From [Mycobacterium] nativiensis (lineage in GTDB: Bacteria > Actinomycetota > Actinomycetes > Mycobacteriales > Mycobacteriaceae), in assembly GCF_020172685.1 (NCBI RefSeq), contig NZ_CP083986.1:3174895-3238894 (forward strand): DNA of 64,000 nt. The letters run 5' to 3'. Shown in pieces: positions 45,580 to 57,619 of the stretch. The position numbers and the translations under genes were made by a program. Under the pieces are notes generated by a model. It ran no database searches, was not told the origin of the DNA, and worked only from the letters and a program-made list of their open reading frames with translations. Position 1 is the stretch's first letter. The number at the start of each line of letters is the position of its first letter.

Positions 45580-46329
45580 TTAGGTGGTGACCAGTGTCCC
45601 GATCTTCTCACCCGCGACCGCCCGCGCGATATTTCCGGACACCAGCAGGTTGAACACCAGGATCGGCATGCCATTGTCCATGCACAGGCTGAACGCGGTG
45701 GCATCGGCCACCTTCAGCCCGCGATCGATGACCTGGCGATGGCTGATCGAGGTGAGCAGTTCGGCGTCCGGGTCGACCCGCGGGTCCGCGGTGAAGATGC
45801 CGTCGACGGCCTTGGCCATCAGCACCACCTGAGCGCCGATCTCCAGCGCCCGCTGGGCGGCGGTGGTGTCGGTGGAGAAGTACGGCAGCCCCATGCCGGC
45901 GCCGAAGATCACCACACGGCCCTTCTCCAGGTGCCGCTGCGCCCGCAGCGGGATGTACGGTTCGGCGACCTGACCCATGGTGATCGCGGTCTGGACCCGG
46001 GTGTCGATGCCTTCCTTCACCAGGAAGTCTTGCAGCGCCAGGCTGTTCATCACGGTGCCGAGCATGCCCATGTAGTCCGAGCGCATCCGGTCCATGCCGC
46101 GTTCCTGCAGCTGGGCGCCACGGAAGAAGTTGCCGCCGCCGATCACCACGGCCACCTGCACCCCGTCACGGACCACCTCGGCGATCTGGCGGGCTACCTG
46201 GGCGACGACATCGGGGTCGAGCCCCACCTGGCCGCCGCCGAACATCTCCCCGCCCAGCTTGAGCAGCACCCGGGAATAGTGGGGGCGACCGGTCGGCTCT
46301 ACTCGGTCGGTACTCGTCGGCTCCGTCAT
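45580..46329 (-). CDS. pyrH: Uridylate kinase
   Basis: 249-residue UMP kinase of the amino-acid kinase family, which phosphorylates UMP to UDP in pyrimidine synthesis. Motifs: [10 protein letters not shown] near residue 23, [14 protein letters not shown] near 61, [17 protein letters not shown] near 85, and [17 protein letters not shown] near 139. The first gene of the pyrH-frr-cdsA-rlmN run, divergent from the ArsR gene across 189 bases, in which two 11-base direct repeats and a palindrome lie. The start is ATG. Confidence 0.96.
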
Positions 46330-46433
46330 CTGGCTCCTCGGGGTCCGCGCATGACAGCGCCATCGCGAAAATCGTCCGCGACGGCATTGTCATCCTGCCC
46401 TATCGGGCTGGTCAAACCGCTCCCGGGGGTCGT

Positions 46434-46457
46434 CGCTTCGAATGTCCGCTTCGAATG
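46434..46457. repeat. Tandem 11-base repeat CGCTTCGAATG between pyrH and the ArsR gene
   Basis: CGCTTCGAATG occurs at 46434-46444 and 46447-46457, period 13. Each copy contains the palindrome TTCGAA. It lies 62 bases before the ArsR start and about 105 bases before that of pyrH, so it could be a protein-binding site for either promoter. Confidence 0.4.
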
Positions 46458-46483
46458 GCGAACCCCCGCAACCTATGAAAACA

Positions 46484-46497
46484 TCTTCAATTGATGA
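46484..46497. promoter_or_regulatory. Near-palindrome upstream of the ArsR/hydrogenase-like operon
   Basis: TCTTCAA-TTGATGA is a 14-bp inverted repeat with 6 of 7 pairs, in an AT-rich tract unlike its surroundings. It ends 22 bases before the GTG of the ArsR gene, a usual place for an autoregulatory operator. Confidence 0.45.
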
Positions 46498-46518
46498 ATC
46501 CCTTGCTAGGGTCGGTCA

Positions 46519-46848
46519 GTGCCCAACTCGCTGCATCAGGTGAAGGCCGAGCTGTTCAAGACTCTTGGACACCCGGCCCGGATCAGGGTGCTCGAACTGC
46601 TGGCCGAACGCGACCGCACGGTCGGCGAGCTGCTGCCCGAGGTCGGGTTGGAGGCCTCCAACCTCTCTCAGCAGCTCGGCGTGCTGCGGCGCGCGGGTGT
46701 TGTGATGGCGACTAAGGAAGGCAACACGGTGGTCTACTCGATCGCCTCACCGGTGATCGGCGAGCTGCTCGCGGTGACCCGCAAAGCACTCGCCGGCCTG
46801 CTCACCGAGCAGGCTGCGATCCTCGACGACCTGCGGGCCGAGCAATGA
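46519..46848 (+). CDS. ArsR/SmtB family regulator (Rv0081-like)
   Basis: 109-residue winged-helix repressor: FKTLGHPARIRVLELLAERDRTVGELLPEVGLEASNLSQQLGVLRRAGVV, then the wing TKEGNTVVYSI. It contains no cysteine and lacks the metal-binding E-L-C-V-C-D motif, so it senses something other than metals through the usual cysteine site. It starts with GTG. Its stop overlaps the ATG of the iron-sulfur subunit gene (ATGA). In M. tuberculosis a regulator of this family heads the equivalent cluster (Rv0081-Rv0087) and belongs to the hypoxia-linked DosR network, as I recall. It probably represses its own operon. Confidence 0.85.
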   Translation: MPNSLHQVKAELFKTLGHPARIRVLELLAERDRTVGELLPEVGLEASNLSQQLGVLRRAGVVMATKEGNTVVYSIASPVIGELLAVTRKALAGLLTEQAAILDDLRAEQ

Positions 46849-47318
46849 GCTGGCTGACCAGGATCTTTTCGCTCGGCCGCGTCACCGAGCCGGCCGGACC
46901 CCAGCCCGCCGCCGCCGCTGCCCCACTGGAGCGCGGATCGGTACAGATCCGCCATGTCGACGCCGGATCGTGCAACGGTTGCGAGATCGAGATCGGCGGG
47001 GCCTTCGGCCCGGTATATGACGCCGAACGGTTCGGCGCCCGGCTCGTCGCATCCCCGCGCCACGCGGATGCCCTGCTGGTCACCGGCGTGGTCACCCGCA
47101 ACATGGCCGAGCCGCTGCGCAACACCCTCGAGGCCACCCCCCAGCCCCGGCGTGTCATCGCCTGCGGTGACTGCGCGCTCAACCGGGGCGTGTTCGCGAA
47201 GGCATACGGAACCGTCGGCGCCGTCAGCGATGTCGTCCCGGTGGACGTCGAGATCCCCGGCTGCCCGCCCACTCCCGAGCAGATCCTCAGCGCACTGCGG
47301 TCGGTGACGGGCAAGTGA
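46845..47318 (+). CDS. Hydrogenase-type small subunit / NuoB-like iron-sulfur protein
   Basis: 157-residue subunit of the NuoB/HycG family, which carries the [4Fe-4S] cluster next to the active-site subunit. The cysteines C43 and C46 (SCNGCEIEIGG), C107 and C110 (ACGDCALNRG) and C140 (PGCPPTPEQIL) are all present, so the cluster is probably intact. The first ~30 residues are an extension rich in alanine and proline. It overlaps the ArsR gene and the next membrane subunit by four bases each. Its partner large subunit, encoded last in the operon, lacks the NiFe ligands. Confidence 0.88.
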   Translation: MSWLTRIFSLGRVTEPAGPQPAAAAAPLERGSVQIRHVDAGSCNGCEIEIGGAFGPVYDAERFGARLVASPRHADALLVTGVVTRNMAEPLRNTLEATPQPRRVIACGDCALNRGVFAKAYGTVGAVSDVVPVDVEIPGCPPTPEQILSALRSVTGK

Positions 47319-49270
47319 GCACGCTGGCCGTCACTCCCCCGGAATCATTGCGCCACAAGGCGCTCGGATCACTACTCAGCGGTGCGGCAACAGCCGGGAT
47401 CGGCTCGGCCGGGATCGGCGTGGGCCTGGCCGGCATGTTCGGCGCCCTACCCGCGATCCGGCTCAGCTGGCTGATTCCGCTGCTGGGTATGCAGCTGCGC
47501 GTCGAGCCGCTCGGTGGCTTCTTCATGGTGCTGACCGGCGCGGTGGCCGTCGCGGCCGGCCTGTACTGGATCGGCTACGCCCGCCACGAGAACTACGGCA
47601 CGGTCCCACTGGTGACACTGCCCCTGTTCGTCGTCTCCCTGCTGGCGGTTCCGGCGGCCGGGTCGGTCACCACGTTCCTGTTCGCGTGGGAGCTGATGGC
47701 GTTGACCTCGCTGGTGCTGGTGCTCACCGAACAACGGCGCAGCGAGGTGCGCTCAGCCGCCCTGGTGTACGCGGTGATGACACACCTGGGCTTCGTGACG
47801 CTGCTGCTGGGGATGGTGGTGCTGGCGGCCACCGCCGGCGATGACTTCGCGGGTATCGGCGCGCTGCCGGACGGCGTGCGCAACACCGTCTTCGTATTGA
47901 CCCTGATCGGTTTCGGTTCCAAGGCCGGCCTGCTGCCGCTGCATGCGTGGCTGCCCCGCGCACATCCGGAGGCACCGAGTCCGATCTCGGCGCTGCTGTC
48001 CGGCGCCATGGTGAACCTCGGCATCTACGGGATCATCCGAATCGACCTACAGCTGCTGGGCCCCGGCCCGCGGTGGTGGGCCTTGACGCTCCTGATCATC
48101 GGCGGCGTATCCGCGGTATACGGGGTACTGCAGGCATCGGTGGCGACCGATCTCAAACGGCTGCTTGCCTATTCGACGACCGAGAACATCGGGCTGATCA
48201 CCCTGGCGCTGGGCACGGCGATGTTGCTGTCCGGCTCGGGATCCCGCCAGGCGGCGGCTGTCGCCATGACTGCGGCACTACTGCACCTGACCGCCCACAG
48301 CGCGTTCAAGAGTCTCGGATTCTTCGCCGCCGGGTCGGTGCTGTCCGCCACCGGCCTGCGCGATCTGGACCGGCTCGGCGGCCTGGCCCGCCGAATGCCG
48401 GTCACCACTGCGCTTTTCGGTGTGGCCGCGCTCGGCGCCGCCGGACTGCCACTGGGTGCGGGCTTCGCCGGCGAGTGGCTACTGCTCCAATCGCTGATGC
48501 ACGCCCAGCCCGACCACGACGCCACGATCGCGCTGCTGACACCGCTGGCGGTGGCCGCGGCGGCCCTGACCGCAGGATTGGGGGTGGCCGCCATGGTCAA
48601 GGCGTTCGGAATCGGCTTCCTGGCGCGTCCGCGCTCGGATGCCGCAGCGGAGGCGCATGAGGCGCCCCGCACGATGATCGCCGGGATGGCGCTGCCCGCG
48701 CTGGCCTGCCTGGTGCTGGCCCTGGCCCCGGGCACCGTCGCGCCGATGCTGAACCGGGTGCTCGACACCCTGCCGATCTCCGGGGAGGCCCCCACTCTCG
48801 GGGTGTTCCTGCGCATTCCGGGACTGCACGGTTCAATGGCCCCGGGCCTGCTGGCCGCTGTGGTGGCCGCCGCCGTGCTGGTGGTGCTGATCGGTTCGCG
48901 CTGGCGCGCGAGCCGGCGTCCCAGCCCGGCCACGGTGCCGTTGTGGGCCTGCGGCGCCGAGGAACTGACCCCCCGCATGCAGTACACCGCGACGTCGTTC
49001 GCCCAGCCGCTGCAGCAGGTCTTCGACGACGTGCTGCGCACCGACACCGACGTCGAGGTGACCCGCCAAGCGTCGTCGAGCTACGTGGTGGAGCGGATCG
49101 ACTATCGGGCGCGGGTCGCCGACGTCATCGAGGACAGCTGGTATACCCCGGTGCTGCGCAGCATCGCCGCGGCCGCGCAGCTGGTCCGCCGCGCCCACAC
49201 CGGAAGCGTGCACCTGTACCTGGCCTACGGCGCCGTCGGTGTACTGATCGCCCTGCTGGTGGCGCGATGA
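47315..49270 (+). CDS. Proton-pumping membrane subunit (HyfB/HycC-like, NuoL family)
   Basis: 651-residue antiporter-like membrane protein with about 16 hydrophobic segments. The core motif block is [44 protein letters not shown] near residue 205, including the conserved lysine and histidine. The loop helix [19 protein letters not shown] near 272 is the broken helix with lysine of proton pumps. The C-terminal part carries the HyfB-type [27 protein letters not shown]. In group 4 hydrogenases and complex I, such subunits move protons or ions. It starts with GTG, overlapping the previous stop (GTGA). Confidence 0.87.
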
Positions 49271-50229
49271 ACGCGATGGCCTACCTGGCCGGTTTCGTGC
49301 AGGTCGCCGGTGTCATCCTCGGCGCCCCACTGGTGATCGGCCTGATGCGCCAGGTCCGGGCACGAGCCGAGGGCCGCGCCGGCGCCGGGGTTCTGCAACC
49401 GTGGCGCGACACCCGCAAGCTGCTGGGCAAGCAGGTACTCAAGCCGCTCGGCACCACCTGGGTGTTCGCCGCGGCCCCGGCCGCGGTGGCCGCCACCACG
49501 CTGGTCATCGTCGCGACCGCGCCGCTGGTGGCCACCGGCTCGCCGCTGGACCCGGTCGCCGACCTGATCACCGTCGTGGGCCTACTGTTCCTGGGCACCG
49601 TGGCGCTCACCCTGGCCGGGATCGACACCGCGACGGCCTTCGGCGGAATGGGCGCCAGCCGGGAGATCACCATCGCCGCCCTGGTCGAGCCGACCATTCT
49701 GCTGGCGGTGTACGCCTTGTCCGTTCCGGCGGGTTCGGCCAACCTGGGCGCCATCGTCGGCAACACCATCGAGCACCCGGGTCAGGTCATCTCGCTGGCC
49801 AGTGCGCTGGCGTTCGTAGCCCTGGTGATCGTGATCGTCGCCGAGACCGGCCGGCTTCCGGTGGACAACCCGTCCACCCACCTGGAGCTGACGATGGTGC
49901 ACGAGGCGATGGTGCTCGAATACGCCGGCCCCAAGCTGGCACTGGTCGAATGGGCCAGCGGCATGCGGTTGACGGTGCTGCTCGCACTGCTGGCGAACCT
50001 GTTCGTCCCGTGGGGCATCGCCGGTGCGGACCCCAGCCTGATCGGCGTGTTCCTCGGCTTCGGCGCGATCGCGATCAAGGTGGCGTTGCTGGCGGTCGCC
50101 CTGGCCGGCATCGAGGTGTTCATCGCCAAGCTGCGACTGTTCCGGGTGCCCGAACTGCTCGCCGGGTCGTTCCTGTTGGCGCTGCTGGCCGTGACGGCGG
50201 CGAACTTCTTCTCGGGGGCAGGCGGATGA
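49267..50229 (+). CDS. Membrane anchor subunit (HycD/HyfC-like, NuoH family)
   Basis: 320-residue NuoH/HycD-type protein with about eight membrane segments, the connector between the hydrophilic arm and the pumps. Family blocks: [26 protein letters not shown] near residue 25 (the site facing the redox arm), [27 protein letters not shown] near 197 with the usual glutamates, and [10 protein letters not shown] near 295. The ATG start overlaps the previous stop (ATGA) and the next start overlaps its own stop. In M. tuberculosis the equivalent is hycD (Rv0084). Confidence 0.9.
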
Positions 50230-50882
50230 CCTACGTCAACATGCTCGATCTCGCCGCCGGCGGGGTGCTGCTGGCCGCGGTGCTGGCGGTCTGGCGCCGG
50301 GACCTGTCGGCTATCGTGCGCCGGCTGCTCGTCGCCCAGGGCATCGCGCTTGCCGCCATCCCGATCATTCGCGGTGTGCAGGACCAGGATCGGGCCCTGA
50401 TCGCGGTCGGGGTCGCGGTACTGGCCATGCGCGCGTTCCTGCTGCCGTGGCTGCTGGCCCGGGCGCTGGGCGCCGAGCGCAAGGAGCGCCGCGAGGCAGC
50501 TCCCCTGGTCAGCAACGCCGCATCCCTGCTGGTGGTCACCGCCCTGGTGGTCGCGGCGTTCACCATCACCCAGCCGGTGATCGCGCTGGCGCCCAGTACC
50601 GCCACGAACGCCGCGCCGGCCGCCATCGCAACCGTGCTGATCGCGCTGTTCATGATGGCGACCCGCCGCAATGCCATCTCGCAGGCGGTCGGACTGTTGA
50701 TGTTGGACAACGGGATTGCCGCCACCGCGTTCCTGCTGACCGCCGGTGTCCCGCTGATCGTCGAACTCGGAGCGTCGCTGGATGTGTTGTTCGTGCTGAT
50801 CGTGCTCGGCGTGCTGACCGGGCAACTGCGCAACGCCTTCGGCGGCGTGGACCTGGACCTGCTGCGGGAGTTGCGGGACTGA
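50226..50882 (+). CDS. Membrane subunit HyfE-like (NuoK-related)
   Basis: 218-residue protein with seven or so hydrophobic segments, of the HyfE/HycP family, whose later half resembles NuoK. Recognisable: [25 protein letters not shown] near residue 77 and the C-terminal [25 protein letters not shown]. It occurs only in hydrogenase-4-like complexes, so it marks this operon as that type rather than a complex I fragment. It starts with ATG inside the previous stop, and its TGA overlaps the next ATG by one base (TGATG). Confidence 0.85.
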
Positions 50883-52348
50883 TGACACCGGTGATCCTGC
50901 TTTCGCTGCTGGCGCCCGTTGCGGCGTCCCTGTTCTGCCTTGCCGTCGGGTGGCGCCGGGTCAGCGCGGTCGCCACGCTGGCCTCAGCACTGACGATTCT
51001 CGGATGCGGTGTGGCCCTGGGGCTTCAAGTCGGCGACCGGGTGCACCTGGGCATGTCCGGCCTGCTGCGCGCCGATGCGCTGTCGGCGACCATGCTGATC
51101 GTCATCGGCGTGGTCGGCAGCCTGGCCACCTGGGCGAGCATCGGTTACCTGGACGCCGAGTTGGCCCGCGGGCACACCGATGCGCGCGGCGCCCGGCTGT
51201 ACGGCATCCTCACCCCGGCGTTCCTCGCGGCCATGGCACTTGCGGTGTCGGCCAACAACATCGGCGTGGTGTGGATCGCGGTGGAGGCCACCACGGTGGT
51301 CACCGCGTTTCTGGTCGGGCATCACCGCAGCCGGTCCGCCCTGGAGGCCACCTGGAAGTACGTCATGGTGTGTTCGGTGGGCATCACCATCGCGTTCCTG
51401 GGGACGGTCCTGCTGCACTTCGCCGCCCGTCACGCCGGTGCCGGCAGCGAGACCGCCCTGCACCTCGACGTGCTGCTCTCCCATGCCGCCGGCCTCGACC
51501 CGGCGGTCACCCGGCTGGCCGGTGCGCTGTTGCTGATCGGGTACGGCGCCAAGATGGGCCTGGCGCCCTTCCACACCTGGCTGGCCGATGCGCACAGCCA
51601 GGCCCCGGCACCGGTGTCGGCGTTGATGAGCGGGGTGCTGCTGTCGGTCGCGTTCTCGGTGCTCATCCGGATCAAGCCGATCATCGACGTCGCGGTGGGC
51701 CCCGGTTTTCTGCGGACCGCGTTGCTGGGCGCCGGGCTGACGACGTTGTTCATCGCCGCGCTGCTGTTGACGGTCACCACCGACCTGAAACGGATGCTGG
51801 CCTATTCATCGATGGAGACCATGGGCCTGATGGCGGTCGCCGCCGCGGCGGGCACCGGCCTGGCGATCGCGGCGCTGCTGCTGCACATCCTGGCCCACGG
51901 CGTCGGCAAGACCGTGTTGTTCCTGGCCGGCGGGCAGCTGCAGGCCGCCCACGATTCGACGGCGATCGGCGAGATCACCGCGGTATTCAGCCGATCACGG
52001 CTGGTCGGTGGCGCGTTCGCAGTCGGGATGGTGGTGTTGCTCGGCCTGCCGCCGTTCGCGATGTTCGCCAGCGAACTGGCCATCGCGATCTCGCTGGCCG
52101 ACGCCCAACTGACGTGGGCGCTGGGTCTGGCACTGGCGGCGCTGGTGGTGGCGTTCGCCGCACTGATCCGCAACTCCGGCCGGATCCTGCTGGGCACACC
52201 GGCCGCCCACAGTCCGGCGATCCGGGTGCCGGCGACTGTCGCCGCGGCCCTGGTCACCGGGGTGCTCGTCTCGATCGCGCTGGGTGTGACCGCCGGCCCA
52301 CTGTCCGACCTGTTCGCCACCGCCGCAAGCCAACTCGGGGCACGCTGA
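50882..52348 (+). CDS. Proton-pumping membrane subunit HyfF-like (NuoN/NuoM family)
   Basis: 488-residue antiporter-like protein with about 14 membrane segments. The pump signature is GYGAKMGLAPFHTWLADAHSQAPAPVSALMSGVLLSVAFSVLIR near residue 220, and the second half has TTDLKRMLAYSSMETMGLMAV with the broken-helix lysine. Together with the 651-residue subunit it gives two pump modules. The one-base overlaps with the genes on both sides show strict coupling. In M. tuberculosis the equivalent is hycQ (Rv0086). Confidence 0.88.
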   Translation: MTPVILLSLLAPVAASLFCLAVGWRRVSAVATLASALTILGCGVALGLQVGDRVHLGMSGLLRADALSATMLIVIGVVGSLATWASIGYLDAELARGHTDARGARLYGILTPAFLAAMALAVSANNIGVVWIAVEATTVVTAFLVGHHRSRSALEATWKYVMVCSVGITIAFLGTVLLHFAARHAGAGSETALHLDVLLSHAAGLDPAVTRLAGALLLIGYGAKMGLAPFHTWLADAHSQAPAPVSALMSGVLLSVAFSVLIRIKPIIDVAVGPGFLRTALLGAGLTTLFIAALLLTVTTDLKRMLAYSSMETMGLMAVAAAAGTGLAIAALLLHILAHGVGKTVLFLAGGQLQAAHDSTAIGEITAVFSRSRLVGGAFAVGMVVLLGLPPFAMFASELAIAISLADAQLTWALGLALAALVVAFAALIRNSGRILLGTPAAHSPAIRVPATVAAALVTGVLVSIALGVTAGPLSDLFATAASQLGAR

Positions 52349-53826
52349 TGAATCCGATCACCCACGCACAGTCGGTCTCCGAGGCCGAGCTGACCGGCGC
52401 CGCGGCGGCCCTGCTGGCCGACGGGTTCCGGCTCGCCCTGGTGGCTGCCCACGACGACGGCGACCGCCTGCGGGTGGTGTACCTGTTCCTCGCGGGCCGC
52501 CCGGATCGGCGCACCGAGTTGACCCTGAGCATTCCGGCGGACAATCCCACCGTCCCCACGCTGGCCCGGCTGTCGTTCCCGTCCGGCCGCTTCGAGCGAG
52601 AGATGATGGACCTCTACGGGATCACCCCGGTCGGTCATCCGCAACCACGCCGCCTGGTGCGGCACGCGCACTGGCCGGAGGACTGGCACCCGATGCGGCG
52701 TGATGCCGGTCCACCCCCGGAATTCGCTGCGGCGGGGCGATTCCCGTTCCTGAACGTGGATGGGGCCGGCGTCTACGAGATCCCGGTCGGGCCGGTGCAC
52801 GCCGGCCTGATCGAGCCCGGCCACTTCCGGTTCTCGGTGGTCGGCGAATCAGTGCTGCGGCTCAAGGCGCGACTGTGGTTCGTGCACCGCGGAATCGAGC
52901 GGCTGTTTCACGGCCGGGCCGCCGACGCCGCGGTCGACCTGGCCGAACGGATCAGCGGTGACACCTCCGCCGGTCATGGGCTCGCCCACGCCCTGGCCGT
53001 CGAAGATGCCCTCGGCGTCGAGCTTCCCGACCAGGCGCACCGGCTGCGTGCGCTGCTGCTCGAACTCGAGCGGCTCTACAACCACGTCACCGACCTGGGC
53101 GCCCTGGCCAACGATGTCGCCTTCGGGCTGGCCAACGCGCACGCCCAACGCGTCCGCGAGCTGCTGCTGCGCATCAACGCCCAAGTGACCGGCCACCGGC
53201 TGCTGCGCGGGGCGATCCGCCCCGGAGGTGTTGCGCTGCAAGCACTGCCCGACCCGAATCGGCTGCAGGAACTGGCCGACGACGTCGCCGAGATCGCCGA
53301 GTTGACGCTGGGCAACTCGGTGATCTATGACCGGTTCGCCGACACGTCGGTGTTGAGCCGGCAGGACGCGCAGGCGCTGGGCACGCTGGGTTACGTGGCG
53401 CGCGCCAGCGGCATCGTCACCGACGCCCGCCTCGACCATCCGACCACCGATCTGCCGGTCTGCGAGGTGAGGGAGACCGCCGGCGATGTGCTCGCCCGCT
53501 ACACCGTCCGCCGCGACGAGTTCGCGGCGTCGGTGGCGCTGTGCCGCAACCTGATCGACGGGCACCACGGCCCCCTCGAGGCCCACGCGGAGCTCCCCGC
53601 CGCGACTCGGGCGTGCAGCGGGGTCGGTATCGCCGAGGGTTGGCGCGGCAGCATCGTGCACCGGGTGGAGATCGGCGCCGACGGGGCCTTCACCCGCGCC
53701 AAGATCGTCGACCCGTCCTGGTTCAACTGGCCCGCCCTGCCGATGTCCATGACCGACACCATCGTTCCGGACTTCCCCCTGACCAACAAGAGCTTCAACC
53801 TGTCCTACGCCGGAAACGACTTATAG
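52348..53826 (+). CDS. Hydrogenase large-subunit-like protein (HycE/NuoCD fold) without NiFe ligands
   Basis: 492 residues. The N-terminal ~120 resemble NuoC (FEREMMDLYGITPVGHP near 82-98). The rest is the NuoD/hydrogenase large-subunit fold: PVGPVHAGLIEPGHFRF near 146-162 and FVHRGIERLF near 178-187. In HycE the motif CGIC follows the R of RVCGIC; here residues 201-210 read RISGDTSAGH. The C-terminal CxxC of HycE is replaced by LSYA in FNLSYAGNDL (residues 483-492). Only three cysteines exist and none pair as CxxC. It therefore cannot hold a NiFe centre and may be a quinone-site or regulatory remnant. It is the operon's last gene. Confidence 0.85.
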   Translation: MNPITHAQSVSEAELTGAAAALLADGFRLALVAAHDDGDRLRVVYLFLAGRPDRRTELTLSIPADNPTVPTLARLSFPSGRFEREMMDLYGITPVGHPQPRRLVRHAHWPEDWHPMRRDAGPPPEFAAAGRFPFLNVDGAGVYEIPVGPVHAGLIEPGHFRFSVVGESVLRLKARLWFVHRGIERLFHGRAADAAVDLAERISGDTSAGHGLAHALAVEDALGVELPDQAHRLRALLLELERLYNHVTDLGALANDVAFGLANAHAQRVRELLLRINAQVTGHRLLRGAIRPGGVALQALPDPNRLQELADDVAEIAELTLGNSVIYDRFADTSVLSRQDAQALGTLGYVARASGIVTDARLDHPTTDLPVCEVRETAGDVLARYTVRRDEFAASVALCRNLIDGHHGPLEAHAELPAATRACSGVGIAEGWRGSIVHRVEIGADGAFTRAKIVDPSWFNWPALPMSMTDTIVPDFPLTNKSFNLSYAGNDL

Positions 53827-53851
53827 CGCGTCGGCACCGCCGCGCGGTATG

Positions 53852-53864
53852 TCAAGATATTTGA
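53852..53864. promoter_or_regulatory. Imperfect palindrome at the start of the MarR gene
   Basis: TCAAGATATTTGA (TCAA/TTGA ends) overlaps the likely transcription start, two bases before the ATG. It is AT-rich against its surroundings and could be the autoregulatory MarR site. Confidence 0.4.
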
Positions 53865-53865
53865 T

Positions 53866-54285
53866 ATGGGTGACGTGGACGCCGCTCCGCTGGGATATCT
53901 GCTGTACCGGGTGAGTTCGGCGCTGCGTCCGCAGGCGACGGCCGTACTCGGGCCGCTGGGGCTCACACTGCCCGAATTCGTCTGCATGCGAGTGCTTTCG
54001 CTGTATCCCGGGCTGTCCAGCGCCGAGTTGGCGCGTCACACCAGCGTCACCCCGCAGGCCATGAACACCGTGCTGCAACGGCTGCAGAACCGCGGGGCGG
54101 TGGCCCGGCCGGAAACGGTGCCGTCCGGGCGTGCCCTACCGGCCAACCTGACCGAGACCGGTCGCGACCTGCTCAAGCAGGCCGAGGACGCGATCCGGGT
54201 CGCCGACGGGCGTGTGCTGTCCGCCCTGACCTCGGCCGAGCAGCACCAACTGCGGCAGATGCTGGAGCGGATCGGCGTCCAGTGA
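53866..54285 (+). CDS. MarR family regulator (Rv2887-like)
   Basis: 139-residue winged-helix protein: PLGLTLPEFVCMRVLSLYPGLSSAELARHTSVTPQAMNTVLQRLQNRGAV, then the wing and the C-terminal dimer helix. By length, sequence and position before the amidase gene it matches M. tuberculosis Rv2887, which represses a small-molecule methyltransferase gene and whose mutants are drug-tolerant, as I recall. Its regulon here cannot be inferred, as none of those targets is in the window. It starts with ATG near a palindrome and converges with the amidase gene, with a 4-base gap. Confidence 0.82.
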   Translation: MGDVDAAPLGYLLYRVSSALRPQATAVLGPLGLTLPEFVCMRVLSLYPGLSSAELARHTSVTPQAMNTVLQRLQNRGAVARPETVPSGRALPANLTETGRDLLKQAEDAIRVADGRVLSALTSAEQHQLRQMLERIGVQ

Positions 54286-54289
54286 TGCC

Positions 54290-55720
54290 TCAGACCCGGT
54301 CGGCGATGGTGGGCCAGGGCATGGCGGACTCCAGTTCGTAAGCCAACTCCAGCAACCGGGCGTCCTGTCCCAGTGGTGCGCTGAACATCATCCCCACCGG
54401 CAGCCCACCGGCGGATTCGGCCAGCGGCAGCGAGATCGCCGGCTCGCCGGAGACATTCTGCAGCGGGGTGAACGCCACCCAATCCATCAGCCGGTCGATG
54501 ATCTGCTGGTAGTCGGCGGCGGGGTCCAGATGCCCGATCCGCGGTGTGCCATGTGCCAGCGTCGGGGTGAGCACCACGTCGTGGTCGCGGAACAACGGCG
54601 CGGTGTGCCGGCGCCGCACGGCAGCCAGTCGGGCCATCGCGAGCGGCAGCCGGTACAGGTGGCGGGTGGCGTGGCGATCAAGCCCGAGCGTCAGGTTGTC
54701 CAGGCGGCTGCGATCGAAGGTGGGGCCGAACATCCGCTTCCCACCCCGGACCAGTGCGGTCGCCAAAAACGCCCAGTAGAGCAGGAAGTCGTCGGCGAAG
54801 TGCGCCGGCACCGGCGGCCTGTCGAGGTATTCGACGCGGTGGCCCAGTTCTTCGAGAAGCGCGGCGGTCTTCAGCGTCAGCTCGCGCATCTCCGCCGACG
54901 TCTCGCGCAGGATCGACTGGGTGACCACCGCGATGTTCAGTCGCCCCCGCCCCGGCTCCCGGACATCACCGATCGCCGGCAGCTTGGTGTTGCGCCAGAT
55001 CCGTTCGGCCTCGCGGTAGAAGGCGGCGGTGTCGCGCACCGAGCGGGTCACCACCCCGTTGTAGACGATGCGCACCGGCATGGCGCGCATGTCCTTGTCC
55101 AGCGGCAGCCGGCCCCGCGAGGGCTTGAGGCCGACCAAGCCGTTGCATGCCGCGGGGATGCGGATGGACCCGCCGCCGTCGTTGGCGTGTGCGATCGGCA
55201 CCACGCCGGCCGCCACGAACGCCGCCGATCCCGACGACGACGCCGCGGCGGTGTAGTCGGTGTTCCACGGGTTGCGCACCGCGCCAAGTCGCGGGTGCTC
55301 GGCGGAGGCGCTGAACCCGAACTCGCTCAGCTGGGTCTTGCCGAGCGCGATCAGCCCGGTGCCGAGATACACCCGCGCGAAATCACCGTCGGCGGCGGCG
55401 TCGTGCGGCTGCCACGCATCGGTGCCCTGCATGGTGGGCATCCCGGCGACGTCGACGTTGTCCTTGACGTACGTCGGGACGCCCTGGAAGAACCCCGAGT
55501 AGCCGGCCCGTGAGCCCTGTCGAGCGGATGCGCTGTCCCGGGCGCGGTCGAATGCCCGGTAGGCCAGTGCATTCAGCTGCGGGTTGACCGCTTCGCTGCG
55601 TGCGATCGCGGCGTCGACGAGCTCGGCCGGAGAAACGTCGCCCGATCGGATTCGTTCAACCAGACCCACCGCATCGGAGTCGCCGAGCGCGTCGTCGCCG
55701 AAGGCGTGCACATGTTGCAT
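54290..55720 (-). CDS. amiC: Amidase signature family protein (AmiC-like)
   Basis: 476-residue amidase with the Ser-cisSer-Lys triad: the lysine in [13 protein letters not shown] near residue 86, the serines in [15 protein letters not shown] near 158-170 and the [23 protein letters not shown] block near 183. These enzymes hydrolyse a range of linear amides; the substrate is unknown. By position it matches M. tuberculosis amiC (Rv2888c). The ATG at 55720 lies next to GTGCAC repeats. Its upstream side faces the terminator of the rpsB-tsf operon, so it probably has its own promoter. Confidence 0.88.
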
Positions 55721-55738
55721 GCGTGCACGCTAGCAAGA

Positions 55739-55794
55739 ACGCCAACGGCGATCGCGAGCGCGGCAGTGCCGGGCTCAGCGATCGCCGTTGGCGT
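55739..55794 (-). terminator. Terminator hairpin after tsf (perfect 17-bp stem)
   Basis: ACGCCAACGGCGATCGC and GCGATCGCCGTTGGCGT are perfect complements, 17 bp each, with a 22-base loop. It begins 12 bases after the tsf stop, on the minus strand, and is followed by TTCTTGCT. It is a strong end for the rpsB-tsf transcript, before amiC. Confidence 0.8.
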
Positions 55795-55805
55795 ATTTAG
55801 AGCTG

Positions 55806-56621
55806 TTAGGCCTGGCCGACCTCGAACCGCACGAAGCGGGTCACGGTCACGCCGGCCTCGTCCAGGAGCGCCTTGACGCTCTTCTTCGAGTCGGACACCG
55901 ACGACTGCTCCAGCAGCACGACGTCCTTGAAGAAGCCGGTCACCCGGCCCTCGACGATCTTGGGCAGCGCAGCCTCGGGCTTGCCCTCTTCCTTGGCCGT
56001 CTCCTCGGCGATGCGCCGCTCGTTGGCAACCAGATCGGCGGGCACGTCGTCGCGGGTCAGGTACTTGGCCTTGAGCGCGGCGATCTGCAGCGCGGCCGCG
56101 TGCGCCGCCTCGGTGTTGTCGCCGCTGTACTCGACCAACACGCCGACGGCCGGCGGCAGGTCGGAGGCCCGCTTGTGCAGGTAGGTCTCCACGGTGCCGC
56201 CGAAGTAGGCGACCCGACGCAGTTCCAGCTTCTCGCCGATCTTGGCCGACAGCGCCGCGATGGCCTCCGCGACCGTGCCGTCCCCGGCCTTGGCAGCCTT
56301 GAGCGTCTCGACGTCGTCGATCTTGCCGGCCGCGGCGGCCGCCACGATCTCATCCGCCAGCGCCTTGAACTCGTCGTTCTTGGCGACGAAGTCGGTCTCG
56401 GAGTTGATCTCGATCAGCGCGCCGTCCTTGGCTGCCACCAGACCTTCGGCGGTAGCGCGCTCAGCACGCTTGCCGACGTCCTTGGCGCCCTTGATACGCA
56501 GCACCTCGACGGCCTTGTCGAAGTCGCCGTCACTCTCGGTCAGCGCGTTCTTGCAGTCCAACATGCCTGCGCCGGTGAGCTCCCGAAGCCGCTTTACGTC
56601 GGCAGCGGTGTAGTTCGCCAC
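55806..56621 (-). CDS. tsf: Elongation factor Ts
   Basis: 271-residue guanine-nucleotide exchange factor of EF-Tu. Motifs: [24 protein letters not shown] near residue 9, [27 protein letters not shown] (the tdf motif, with two aspartates) near 63, and the dimerisation core with the [12 protein letters not shown] repeat. It lies 15 bases after rpsB and forms the universal rpsB-tsf operon. The start is ATG. It ends before a strong hairpin. Confidence 0.97.
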
Positions 56622-56636
56622 TGTGGTGTGCCTTTC

Positions 56637-57455
56637 CTACGATGCGTCGGTGGTGGGGGTTTCGGTGCCGGCCGCAGCCTCAGGCGCCGAAGTGGTGGCA
56701 CCTGCGAGCAGCTCCTGCTCCCATTCGGCCAGCGGCTCGACGGCCTGAGCTTCCGCCTTACCGGCACCGGCCCGGGCCTGCAGGCCCTCGGCGACCGCGG
56801 AGGCGATCACCTTGGTCAGCAGCGCCGCGGAGCGGATCGCGTCGTCGTTGCCCGGGATCGGGTAGTCGACCAGGTCCGGGTCGCAGTTGGTGTCCAGGAT
56901 CGCGATGACCGGGATACCCAGCTTGCGCGCCTCGCCGACGGCGATGTGCTCCTTGTTGGTGTCGACGACCCACACGGCCGACGGCACCTTGGCCATGTCA
57001 CGGATACCGCCGAGGCTGCGCTCCAGCTTGTTCTTCTCGCGGGTCAGCATCAAGATTTCCTTCTTGGTGCGCCCCTCGAAGCCGCCGGTCTGCTCCATGG
57101 CCTCAAGTTCCTTGAGCCGCTGCAGACGCTTGTGAACGGTGGAGAAGTTGGTCAGCATGCCGCCCAGCCAGCGCTGGTTGACGTACGGCATCCCGACGCG
57201 GGTGGCCTCGGCCGCAACCGATTCCTGCGCCTGCTTCTTGGTGCCGACGAACATGATGGAGCCACCGTGGGCGACGGTCTCCTTGACGAACTCGTACGCC
57301 TTGTCGATGAAGGTCAGCGTCTGCTGCAGGTCGATGATGTAGATGCCGTTGCGGTCGGTGAAGATGAACCGCTTCATCTTGGGATTCCAACGACGGGTCT
57401 GATGCCCGAAGTGGGCGCCGCTGTCGAGCAGCTGCTTCATGGTCACTACGGCCAT
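56637..57455 (-). CDS. rpsB: 30S ribosomal protein S2
   Basis: 272-residue S2, which binds the head/body hinge of the 30S subunit. The N-terminus reads [31 protein letters not shown]; later blocks are [19 protein letters not shown] near 125 and [21 protein letters not shown] near 200. The C-terminal 40 residues are an acidic, alanine-rich tail. The ATG at 57455 is chosen because the conserved N-terminus begins there; the upstream frame is non-conserved leader. The 150-base untranslated leader upstream is probably structured. Confidence 0.97.
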
Positions 57456-57619
57456 GGTCCTACCCAGCTTTCTTAGTGTCGGTTGTCGCCCGGCGTCGGG
57501 TGAGGCCGGGCCCTGGTGCCTGCTGAGATGTCGGACCCCTGTTGGGGACCACCCGGCATCCGGTTGTGGTGCAGACACGCGAAGTCAGTCCGCATACGCG
57601 AACTGCGCGGATGAGTTTA
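57456..57619 (-). promoter_or_regulatory. rpsB promoter and structured leader
   Basis: On the minus strand TAAACT (57614-57619) fits a mycobacterial -10 element. Transcription from it would give a leader of about 150 bases. The leader contains a perfect 7-bp stem GCCCGGC/GCCGGGC (57488-57494 with 57505-57511) and a second stem around GGTCCCC/GGGGTCC (57533-57550, one mismatch). In other bacteria S2 autoregulates rpsB through its leader; the same is plausible here. No clear -35 element was found. Confidence 0.4.

What the first reader, a model, noticed from the sequence alone, without database searches (positions are those of the whole stretch)
46519..53826. Complete, coupled hydrogenase-4-like membrane complex whose catalytic subunit has lost both NiFe cysteine pairs
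The large subunit has RISGDTSAGH where HycE has R-V-C-G-I-C, and FNLSYAGNDL where HycE ends in C-x-x-C. The small subunit keeps all five cysteines (43, 46, 107, 110, 140), and the pump subunits keep their key lysines and histidines. There is no ferredoxin-like HycB/HyfA subunit and no maturation gene. A quinone- or NuoD-like function, a redox-driven ion pump using another donor, or a non-redox ion channel are all possible. The same arrangement exists in M. tuberculosis (Rv0081-Rv0087), as I recall, so an unexplained complex is conserved across mycobacteria.
Basis: partly seen in the sequence, partly recalled or inferred. Interest (0 to 1): 0.78.

Follow-up and report, generated by a model that had tools for sequence, protein, structure and literature searches.

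The report
Hydrogenase-like membrane complex without hydrogenase site
This mycobacterial operon encodes a complete membrane machine descended from hydrogen enzymes that has lost the metal site needed to handle hydrogen but kept its ion-moving parts; such complexes are already known, and close relatives that have lost even the iron-sulfur site suggest it may move ions without using hydrogen at all.

Summary
Observation confirmed. Six overlapping genes plus an ArsR regulator (46519-53826) encode a group-4-hydrogenase/complex-I-type complex. Its large subunit has Ser203, Thr206, Ser486 and Gly489 at the four NiFe cysteines; the small subunit keeps all four cluster ligands. The 5.28 Mb genome has no HypD, no HypF above cut-off and no maturation protease. 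It is not a hydrogenase. It belongs to the known Ehr class (energy-converting-hydrogenase-related complexes), and print already says so for the tuberculosis complex (PMC6728331).

New here: the replacement site is fixed, not decayed (SGD...NKSFN-SY-GND). The canopy Asp of the superfamily is Asn484, and both complex I quinone ligands are replaced (Ile155, Gly204). In a sister clade (names include Thermoleophilia, Patescibacteria, Syntrophales) the small subunit has also lost three of four cluster ligands (T/S, D, D; 119 of 120 listed homologs, one with A last), yet the large-subunit site and, in both operons read, the pump and E-channel residues persist. A conserved ArsR-type operator precedes the operon.

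Best reading: an ion-translocating complex gated or driven by a head with one [4Fe-4S] cluster. The driver is unproven. A ferredoxin-type oxidoreductase pump is the main rival.

The parts
46476..46489 (.). ArsR-type operator-like inverted repeat TGAA-N6-TTCA upstream of the operon
   Evidence: TGA[AT]-N6-TTCA in 64 of 72 upstream regions examined, window included; mean 0.1 in 200 base shuffles; the strict form TGAA-N6-TTCA in 17 of 72. The 72 are related sequences, so the contrast is inflated.
46519..46848 (+). ArsR/SmtB-family regulator (Rv0081-like), 109 aa, without any cysteine
   Evidence: Pfam PF01022 3.9e-10, NCBIfam NF033788 1.3e-21; an ArsR match directly upstream in 68 of the 73 complete loci; sequence
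46845..47318 (+). Small subunit (NuoB/HycG/MbhJ-like), 157 aa, with one [4Fe-4S] site C43, C46, C110, C140, plus extra C107
   Evidence: PF01058 1.5e-30; 6cfw_J 1e-34, 7z0s_G 3.5e-34; all five cysteines in 74 of 75 loci among L004-L082 with a hit, one lacks only C107
47315..49270 (+). HyfB-type antiporter-like pump subunit, 651 aa; keeps E126 K203 H210 H217 K332 E387, but N234 at the TM8 lysine position
   Evidence: PF00361 3.8e-53; residue mapping to E. coli HyfB/NuoM
49267..50229 (+). HycD/NuoH-type coupling subunit, 320 aa, with E-channel acids E141 E193 D200 E207 E213 E218
   Evidence: PF00146 1.1e-36; EEDHEEE at seven positions in 77 of 77 loci among L004-L082 with a hit
50226..50882 (+). 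HycP/HyfE-type small membrane subunit, 218 aa
   Evidence: NF008556 6.2e-16, below the model's curated cut-off; no Pfam hit
50882..52348 (+). HyfF-type antiporter-like pump subunit (HycQ), 488 aa; keeps E135 K224 H231 H335 H339 K343 E398
   Evidence: PF00361 1.6e-41
52348..53826 (+). Large subunit (NuoCD/HycE-like), 492 aa, without the NiFe cysteines; no C-terminal extension
52948..52977 (+). Former L1 NiFe motif, residues 201-210 RISGDTSAGH (HycE RVCGIC...)
53794..53823 (+). Former L2 NiFe motif, residues 483-492 FNLSYAGNDL, with N484 at the canopy-Asp position
   Evidence: canopy role from PMC9474812 passages

Best explanation
This is an Ehr complex, a complex-I-superfamily membrane machine that neither makes nor uses H2. 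SHOWN by sequence: NiFe ligands absent; one [4Fe-4S] site left in the small subunit; both quinone-head ligands of complex I replaced; E-channel and nearly all pump residues kept; an ArsR gene in the operon and a conserved operator-like repeat before it. INFERRED: HyfB and HyfF with HycD/HycP still move H+ or another cation, and the small/large head controls or drives them through the E-channel by the state of its single cluster and of a ligand or conformational change at the fixed S203-D205-N484-S486 positions. In mycobacteria this would be a cluster-gated (redox or low-oxygen sensitive) cation/H+ translocator. In the cluster-less sister clade the same machine would run without any redox step.
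For: Not a hydrogenase; no HypD (15), no HypF over cut-off (65), no protease (66). In the genus sample HypD is missing in 13 of 53 genomes with the large subunit and 41 of 145 without it (my count from the lists; Fisher p 0.72), so the complex does not travel with NiFe maturation. Site kept by selection: S203, G204, D205, N484, S486, G489 each 54 of 54 in alignment A3, dN/dS 0.15-0.22. Redox chemistry of the known kinds at the site unlikely: quinone ligands Nqo4 H38 and Y87 align with I155 and G204; the canopy Asp, described as strictly conserved and needed for quinone reduction (PMC9474812 passages), is Asn. Cluster-less sister clade: T/S-C-V/L-D-D/A at the five cysteine positions in 120 of 120 listed homologs, S203 120/120, D205 119/120, S486 120/120, G489 120/120 in 120 listed large subunits, sister to the mycobacterial clade at 99/94, pump and E-channel residues kept in both operons read, L115 and L117.
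Against: Cluster ligands are invariant in the mycobacterial type (75 of 75 at the four ligand positions), and the earliest-branching members (L113, L114, L116) carry two ferredoxin-like cluster motifs in the small subunit (read by eye), so electron transfer was probably the ancestral job and may persist. The canopy Asp is also not Asp in the other Ehr groups and is Glu in the cysteine-keeping group, so its loss is not special to this family. HyfB lacks one pump lysine. No transport, ligand or redox measurement exists here. The pocket is poorly modelled (pLDDT under 50 at 131-181 and 486-492). The tree has long branches and a weak deeper node (81/35).
Confidence: 0.47

Rival explanations
1. A redox-driven ion pump: the small-subunit cluster takes electrons from a soluble donor such as ferredoxin and passes them to an unknown acceptor (quinone, or sulfur as in archaeal MBS), pumping ions as complex I does.
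For: Four cluster ligands invariant in 75 of 75 mycobacterial-type loci; ferredoxin-like motifs in the small subunit of L113, L114, L116; pump and E-channel nearly intact; D256 keeps the complex I Asp139 position.
Against: No electron-input subunit in the mycobacterial operon; quinone His and Tyr replaced by Ile and Gly; canopy Asp replaced by Asn; the same large-subunit site persists in relatives without cluster ligands.
Confidence: 0.38
2. An active NiFe hydrogenase (formate hydrogenlyase), as annotated.
For: Overall homology to HycE and names in print (PMC6901956, PMC11361433, passages).
Against: All four Ni ligands absent; no HypD, HypF (over cut-off) or protease in a one-contig genome; HycB and HycF absent from the operon.
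Confidence: 0.01
3. A decaying relic of a hydrogenase.
For: Cysteines lost; patchy occurrence, 53 of 198 genomes; mostly missing in L078, M. genavense.
Against: Replacement residues fixed in members at 35-40% identity, dN/dS 0.06-0.33 for all seven genes in five pairs, gene order kept in 73 of 79 loci, operator-like repeat in 64 of 72.
Confidence: 0.04
4. A sensor or structural head on an Mrp-like antiporter: the head binds a ligand or metal at S203/D205/N484 and only gates transport, with the cluster structural.
For: Fixed polar replacements at both former metal sites, including Asp at two cluster positions of the relatives; nearly intact pump.
Against: No ligand known; cluster ligands strictly kept in the mycobacterial type.
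Confidence: 0.1

Closest known systems
[quoted passage not shown] Marreiros 2013 seen only as a citation)
   Same: Group-4-like head and antiporter-like subunits, no NiFe cysteines; the M. tuberculosis copy is named EHR in PMC6728331 (passage)
   Different: Subclade with fixed SGD/NKSFN motif and Asn at the canopy Asp; one cluster site only in mycobacteria, ligands lost in the sister clade
E. coli formate hydrogenlyase / Hyf (hydrogenase-4)
   Same: Same six subunit types; best solved match of the large subunit (7z0s_E); E-channel and pump residues
   Different: No HycB/HyfA, HycF/HyfH, HyfD or FdhF in the operon; NiFe ligands, canopy Asp and C-terminal extension absent
Respiratory complex I (NuoB, NuoCD, NuoH, NuoL/M/N)
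   Different: No NADH module or NuoI in the operon; quinone His38 and Tyr87 positions are Ile155 and Gly204; weaker matches elsewhere in the genome are probably its own NuoC and NuoD
Archaeal MBH and MBS complexes
   Same: Small subunit closest to MbhJ (6cfw_J, 1e-34); MBS large subunit among fold matches (6u8y_L)
   Different: MBH keeps the NiFe site; a figure legend of PMC9474812 that covers MbsL calls the canopy Asp strictly conserved (passage), whereas this family has Asn

Membership tests
Group 4 [NiFe] hydrogenase | Two CxxC pairs binding Ni-Fe in the large subunit | tested here: not met
   S203, T206, S486, G489 at the four positions
Group 4 [NiFe] hydrogenase | Maturation genes in the genome (HypD, HypF, protease) | tested here: not met
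   HypD none and TIGR00072 none, E. coli control positive in both; HypF none over cut-off (4 of 14 control genomes over cut-off, not named apart)
Group 4 [NiFe] hydrogenase | H2 turnover | not testable with these tools
   needs an assay
Ehr complex | Homologous to group 4 hydrogenase and complex I head but without the NiFe cysteines | tested here: met
Ehr complex | Antiporter-like (Mrp/NuoL-type) membrane subunits in the same cluster | tested here: met
   PF00361 in two subunits, PF00146 in a third
Complex I (NuoD-type quinone reductase) | Quinone-head ligands His38 and Tyr87 (T. thermophilus Nqo4 numbering; roles recalled) | tested here: not met
   I155 and G204, 54 of 54 each
Complex I | Tandem-cysteine N2 site (recalled) and NADH/NuoI modules | tested here: not met
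   Small subunit has CxxC as in HycG and MbhJ; no such genes in the operon
Formate hydrogenlyase | HycB, HycF and formate dehydrogenase encoded with the complex | tested here: not met
   Absent from the operon; molybdopterin-oxidoreductase matches at four places elsewhere in the genome, not identified further
MBS (sulfane reductase) | Ferredoxin-linked sulfane reduction | not testable with these tools
   cluster ligands present, no activity data
Mrp antiporter | Stand-alone MrpA-G set without a NuoB/NuoD head | tested here: not met
   NuoB- and NuoCD-like genes are part of the operon

The most novel reading that the evidence does not exclude
The SGD/NKSFN family is a complex-I-like ion machine whose head has left redox chemistry. 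Relatives with neither NiFe nor proximal cluster ligands, but with the full pump and E-channel, run on a ligand or conformational step at the old active site, and the mycobacterial complex keeps its one cluster as a gate rather than a wire.
Probability: 0.3. Interest if true: 0.87.

Novelty: new variant of a known kind. Interest (0 to 1): 0.6.

Why it matters
Mycobacteria, the tuberculosis bacterium among them, carry a large energy-type complex still called a purported formate hydrogenlyase in a 2024 paper (PMC11361433, passage). Showing that its site is fixed and not a hydrogenase removes a wrong physiology. The cluster-less relatives are a natural test of an open question in complex I: whether the E-channel and antiporter arms can be driven without electron transfer. 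If they work, they isolate the coupling half of complex I.

Tried and rejected
Displaced CxxC pairs: none; the alignment is ungapped through both motifs and the protein ends with the second. Electron donor from gene neighbourhood: ten chosen neighbours in L070, L113-L116 and L125 gave FtsX/MacB, a helicase, two peptidases, PEPCK, a dynamin-like GTPase, MFS, a histidine kinase and two without family, no dehydrogenase or ferredoxin. Only 30 loci were gene-called, with a crude longest-ORF caller that misses genes in high GC, so this is a thin test. DosR box upstream: 1 of 75 regions within 6 mismatches of a recalled motif. A first inverted-repeat search gave two long imperfect repeats (46351-46393, 46424-46468) and one short palindrome, not tested for conservation; the conserved element is TGA[AT]-N6-TTCA. 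Quinone access from the model: not decidable, pocket loops have pLDDT under 50. The whole six-subunit complex could not be modelled with these tools. PMC13332983 and PMC13284343 were looked into (passages) and gave nothing on Ehr function.

Rows and limits: loci L001-L003 (the window's own copy and weaker matches in its genome) were left out of the motif table. The listed homologs are the best 120 of 8000 scored, so 120 of 120 shows fixation within a clade, not its frequency. Groups overlap. A3 (54 rows) and A4 (36 rows) were chosen by hand for spread. 6 of 79 loci failed the gene-order test, some at contig ends. For short loci L087-L111 the HyfB row can be a hit to the other pump subunit, so only L112-L131 were used there. 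In the genus sample 40 of 53 genomes with the complex do have HypD; whether for other hydrogenases was not tested.

Literature: loss of the small-subunit cluster ligands was not found in searches or in the passages opened; the library holds open-licence papers only. Marreiros 2013, Batista 2013, Coppi 2005 (recalled) and He 2011 were not read.
Full report
WHAT IS THERE. The stretch 46519-53826 holds seven tightly packed plus-strand genes: an ArsR-family regulator, a NuoB-like small subunit, a HyfB-type pump subunit, a HycD/NuoH-like subunit, a HyfE-like subunit, a HyfF-type pump subunit and a NuoCD/HycE-like large subunit, each overlapping the next by 1 or 4 bases. Family scans agree. The genome is one 5.28 Mb contig. 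Its nearest named relatives by this protein are Mycolicibacter and [Mycobacterium] vasticus, so the organism is probably a Mycolicibacter.

THE LOST SITE. Against E. coli HycE the four Ni-binding cysteines (C241, C244, C531, C534) correspond to S203, T206, S486 and G489. All 79 genome loci found with this protein have Ser, Ser, Gly at 203, 486 and 489, and Thr (73) or Ser (6) at 206. The small subunit keeps C43, C46, C110 and C140, plus an extra C107; of the 75 loci among L004-L082 with a hit, 74 keep all five and one lacks only C107. The genome has no HypD match, no maturation-protease match, and only a weak 64-position match to HypF far below cut-off. In 198 genomes of the genus, 53 carry the large subunit and 144 carry HypD. 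Comparing the two lists by eye, HypD is missing in 13 of the 53 and in 41 of the other 145 (Fisher p 0.72). The complex does not travel with NiFe maturation.

A FIXED REPLACEMENT, NOT DECAY. In 54 hand-chosen family members down to 35% identity, S203, G204, D205, S486 and G489 are invariant, as are N480, K481, S482, F483, N484, L485 and Y487. S203, D205, N484, S486 and G489 differ from HycE. The passages of PMC9474812 describe HycE Asp529 as a strictly conserved canopy residue, with Arg478 beside it. Here Arg433 keeps the second role and Asn484 takes the place of the Asp; in a larger set it is Asn in 119 of 120, 117 of 120, 79 of 79 and 8 of 9 rows of four overlapping groups. The SGT and FSGT Ehr groups also lack the Asp, and the cysteine-keeping group has Glu, so the change is not unique to this family. 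The complex I quinone ligands (T. thermophilus His38 and Tyr87; roles recalled) align with Ile155 and Gly204, 54 of 54 each; Asp139 is kept as D256. dN/dS against five close relatives is 0.15-0.22 for the large subunit and 0.06-0.33 over all seven genes.

THE PUMP. HyfB keeps E126, K203, H210, H217, K332 and E387; HyfF keeps E135, K224, H231, H335, H339, K343 and E398; HycD keeps its E-channel acids in 77 of 77 loci among L004-L082 with a hit. One lysine, NuoM K265, is Asn234 in HyfB, and Asn, Ser or Thr in the loci of that set where the position is aligned.

RELATIVES. A sample of 396 genomes of the phylum, 20 fetched stretches and two profile searches show three grades within the family. Mycobacteria, Nocardia and Gordonia have one cluster site. 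Genomes G035, G083 and G360 (L113, L114, L116) carry, by eye, two ferredoxin-like cluster motifs at the start of the small subunit. G282 and G239 (L115, L117) have lost cluster ligands: the five cysteine positions read T, C, L or V, D, D. All 120 listed homologs of that small subunit show T or S, C, V or L, D, and D (119) or A (1). Names given by sources include Thermoleophilia, Candidatus Daviesbacteria, Candidatus Vogelbacteria and Syntrophales; most have no name. In the 120 listed large subunits of that search, S203 is kept in 120, D205 in 119, N484 in 117, S486 and G489 in 120, and the two operons read in full keep the pump and E-channel residues. Cluster-less P0121 is still a NuoB/HycG-type protein by sequence (7z0s_G 1.1e-28) and by model (6cfw_J, TM 0.88 by target length; mean pLDDT 77, pTM 0.72). 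In the tree (53 rows) the family has 96/84 support; mycobacterial and cluster-less clades are sisters at 99/94; the ferredoxin-fused rows branch first. Long branches and the 81/35 node above are caveats. Outside the family, the SGT group also lacks ligands at positions 110 and 140 (L092, L093, L095: P and S; L094: P, second not aligned), and some FSGT rows lack the last (L101/L125 and L131: N; but L096/L120 and L104 keep it). Ligand loss may therefore have happened more than once.

REGULATION AND PLACE. A TGA[AT]-N6-TTCA inverted repeat lies upstream in 64 of 72 regions, mean 0.1 in shuffles; the stricter TGAA form in 17 of 72. In the window it is 46476-46489. The regulator has no cysteine. 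The six genes stand in order in 73 of 79 loci, with an ArsR match directly upstream in 68. Only 15 of 79 loci, L004-L018, share the surroundings; the other 64 share none of the eight flanking genes tested, so the operon sits at different chromosomal places.

LITERATURE. Only passages or listings were seen. PMC6728331 calls the tuberculosis operon an EHR complex and not a functional hydrogenase, because maturation genes are missing. PMC6901956, PMC5484546 and PMC11361433 still use hydrogenase or formate hydrogenlyase names. PMC7304191 reports that CPR Ehr large subunits are monophyletic and lack the metal-binding cysteines. PMC10284858, PMC10432482 and PMC6349859 treat Ehr function as unknown or hypothetical. 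HydDB is trained to exclude Ehr (PMC5037454). None of the passages seen mentions loss of the small-subunit cluster ligands.

HOW IT PROBABLY WORKS. Shown by sequence: not a hydrogenase; one cluster site; no complex I quinone ligands; pump and E-channel residues nearly all kept; site under selection. Inferred: ion translocation controlled or driven by the head. If the old active site served redox chemistry fed by the cluster, it should change when the cluster goes; it does not. That favours a ligand or conformational role for the site. Against this, the cluster ligands are strictly kept in mycobacteria and ferredoxin-like motifs are present in the earliest-branching members, so a redox role cannot be excluded there. 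I commit to a cluster-gated or cluster-driven ion translocator at 0.47, with a conventional oxidoreductase pump at 0.38.

NOVELTY. The class and the verdict 'not a hydrogenase' are known. The fixed motif, canopy Asp to Asn, the operator and above all the cluster-less sister clade are, as far as these searches reach, additions. I therefore file it as a new variant of a known kind.

Noticed in passing
L115 3946-4443, L117 3885-4343; P0121-P0240: Small subunits with T/S, D, D/A in place of three of the four [4Fe-4S] ligands in 120 of 120 listed homologs; the two operons read keep the full pump.
   Followed up: yes
L097-L100, L102, L107, L108 (genomes G338, G186, G078, G347, G111, G320, G218): Large subunits ending in ELCYAC or ELCYSC plus three or four residues, mostly with all four cysteines (L097 has Asp at the second L1 cysteine), yet only G111 of the seven genomes is on the HypD list: cysteines without NiFe maturation, possibly another metal.
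   Followed up: partly
L092-L095, L101, L125, L131: Two further Ehr groups (SGT and FSGT motifs) with partial loss of small-subunit cluster ligands in some members.
   Followed up: partly
L113, L114, L116: Small subunit with N-terminal ferredoxin-like double cluster motif; in L113 and L114 an ArsR gene 42.6% identical to the window's lies beside the operon.
   Followed up: partly
window 45580-57578: The operon and a MarR gene sit between pyrH and amiC/tsf/rpsB homologs; this place is shared by 15 of 79 loci only. The gene names pyrH, amiC, tsf, rpsB, frr, cdsA, rlmN are recalled labels.
   Followed up: yes
window 48014-48016 (HyfB residue 234): The TM8 lysine of pump subunit HyfB is Asn here and Asn/Ser/Thr in mycobacterial-type loci, but Lys in L113, L114, L116, L115 and L117.
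   Followed up: partly
window 46519-46848: The ArsR/SmtB-family regulator has no cysteine, so the usual thiolate metal site cannot form; its signal is unknown (sequence).
   Followed up: no
L037, L067; genome G520: Extra or inverted copies of parts of the operon in M. interjectum and M. palustre loci and two large-subunit copies in G520.
   Followed up: no
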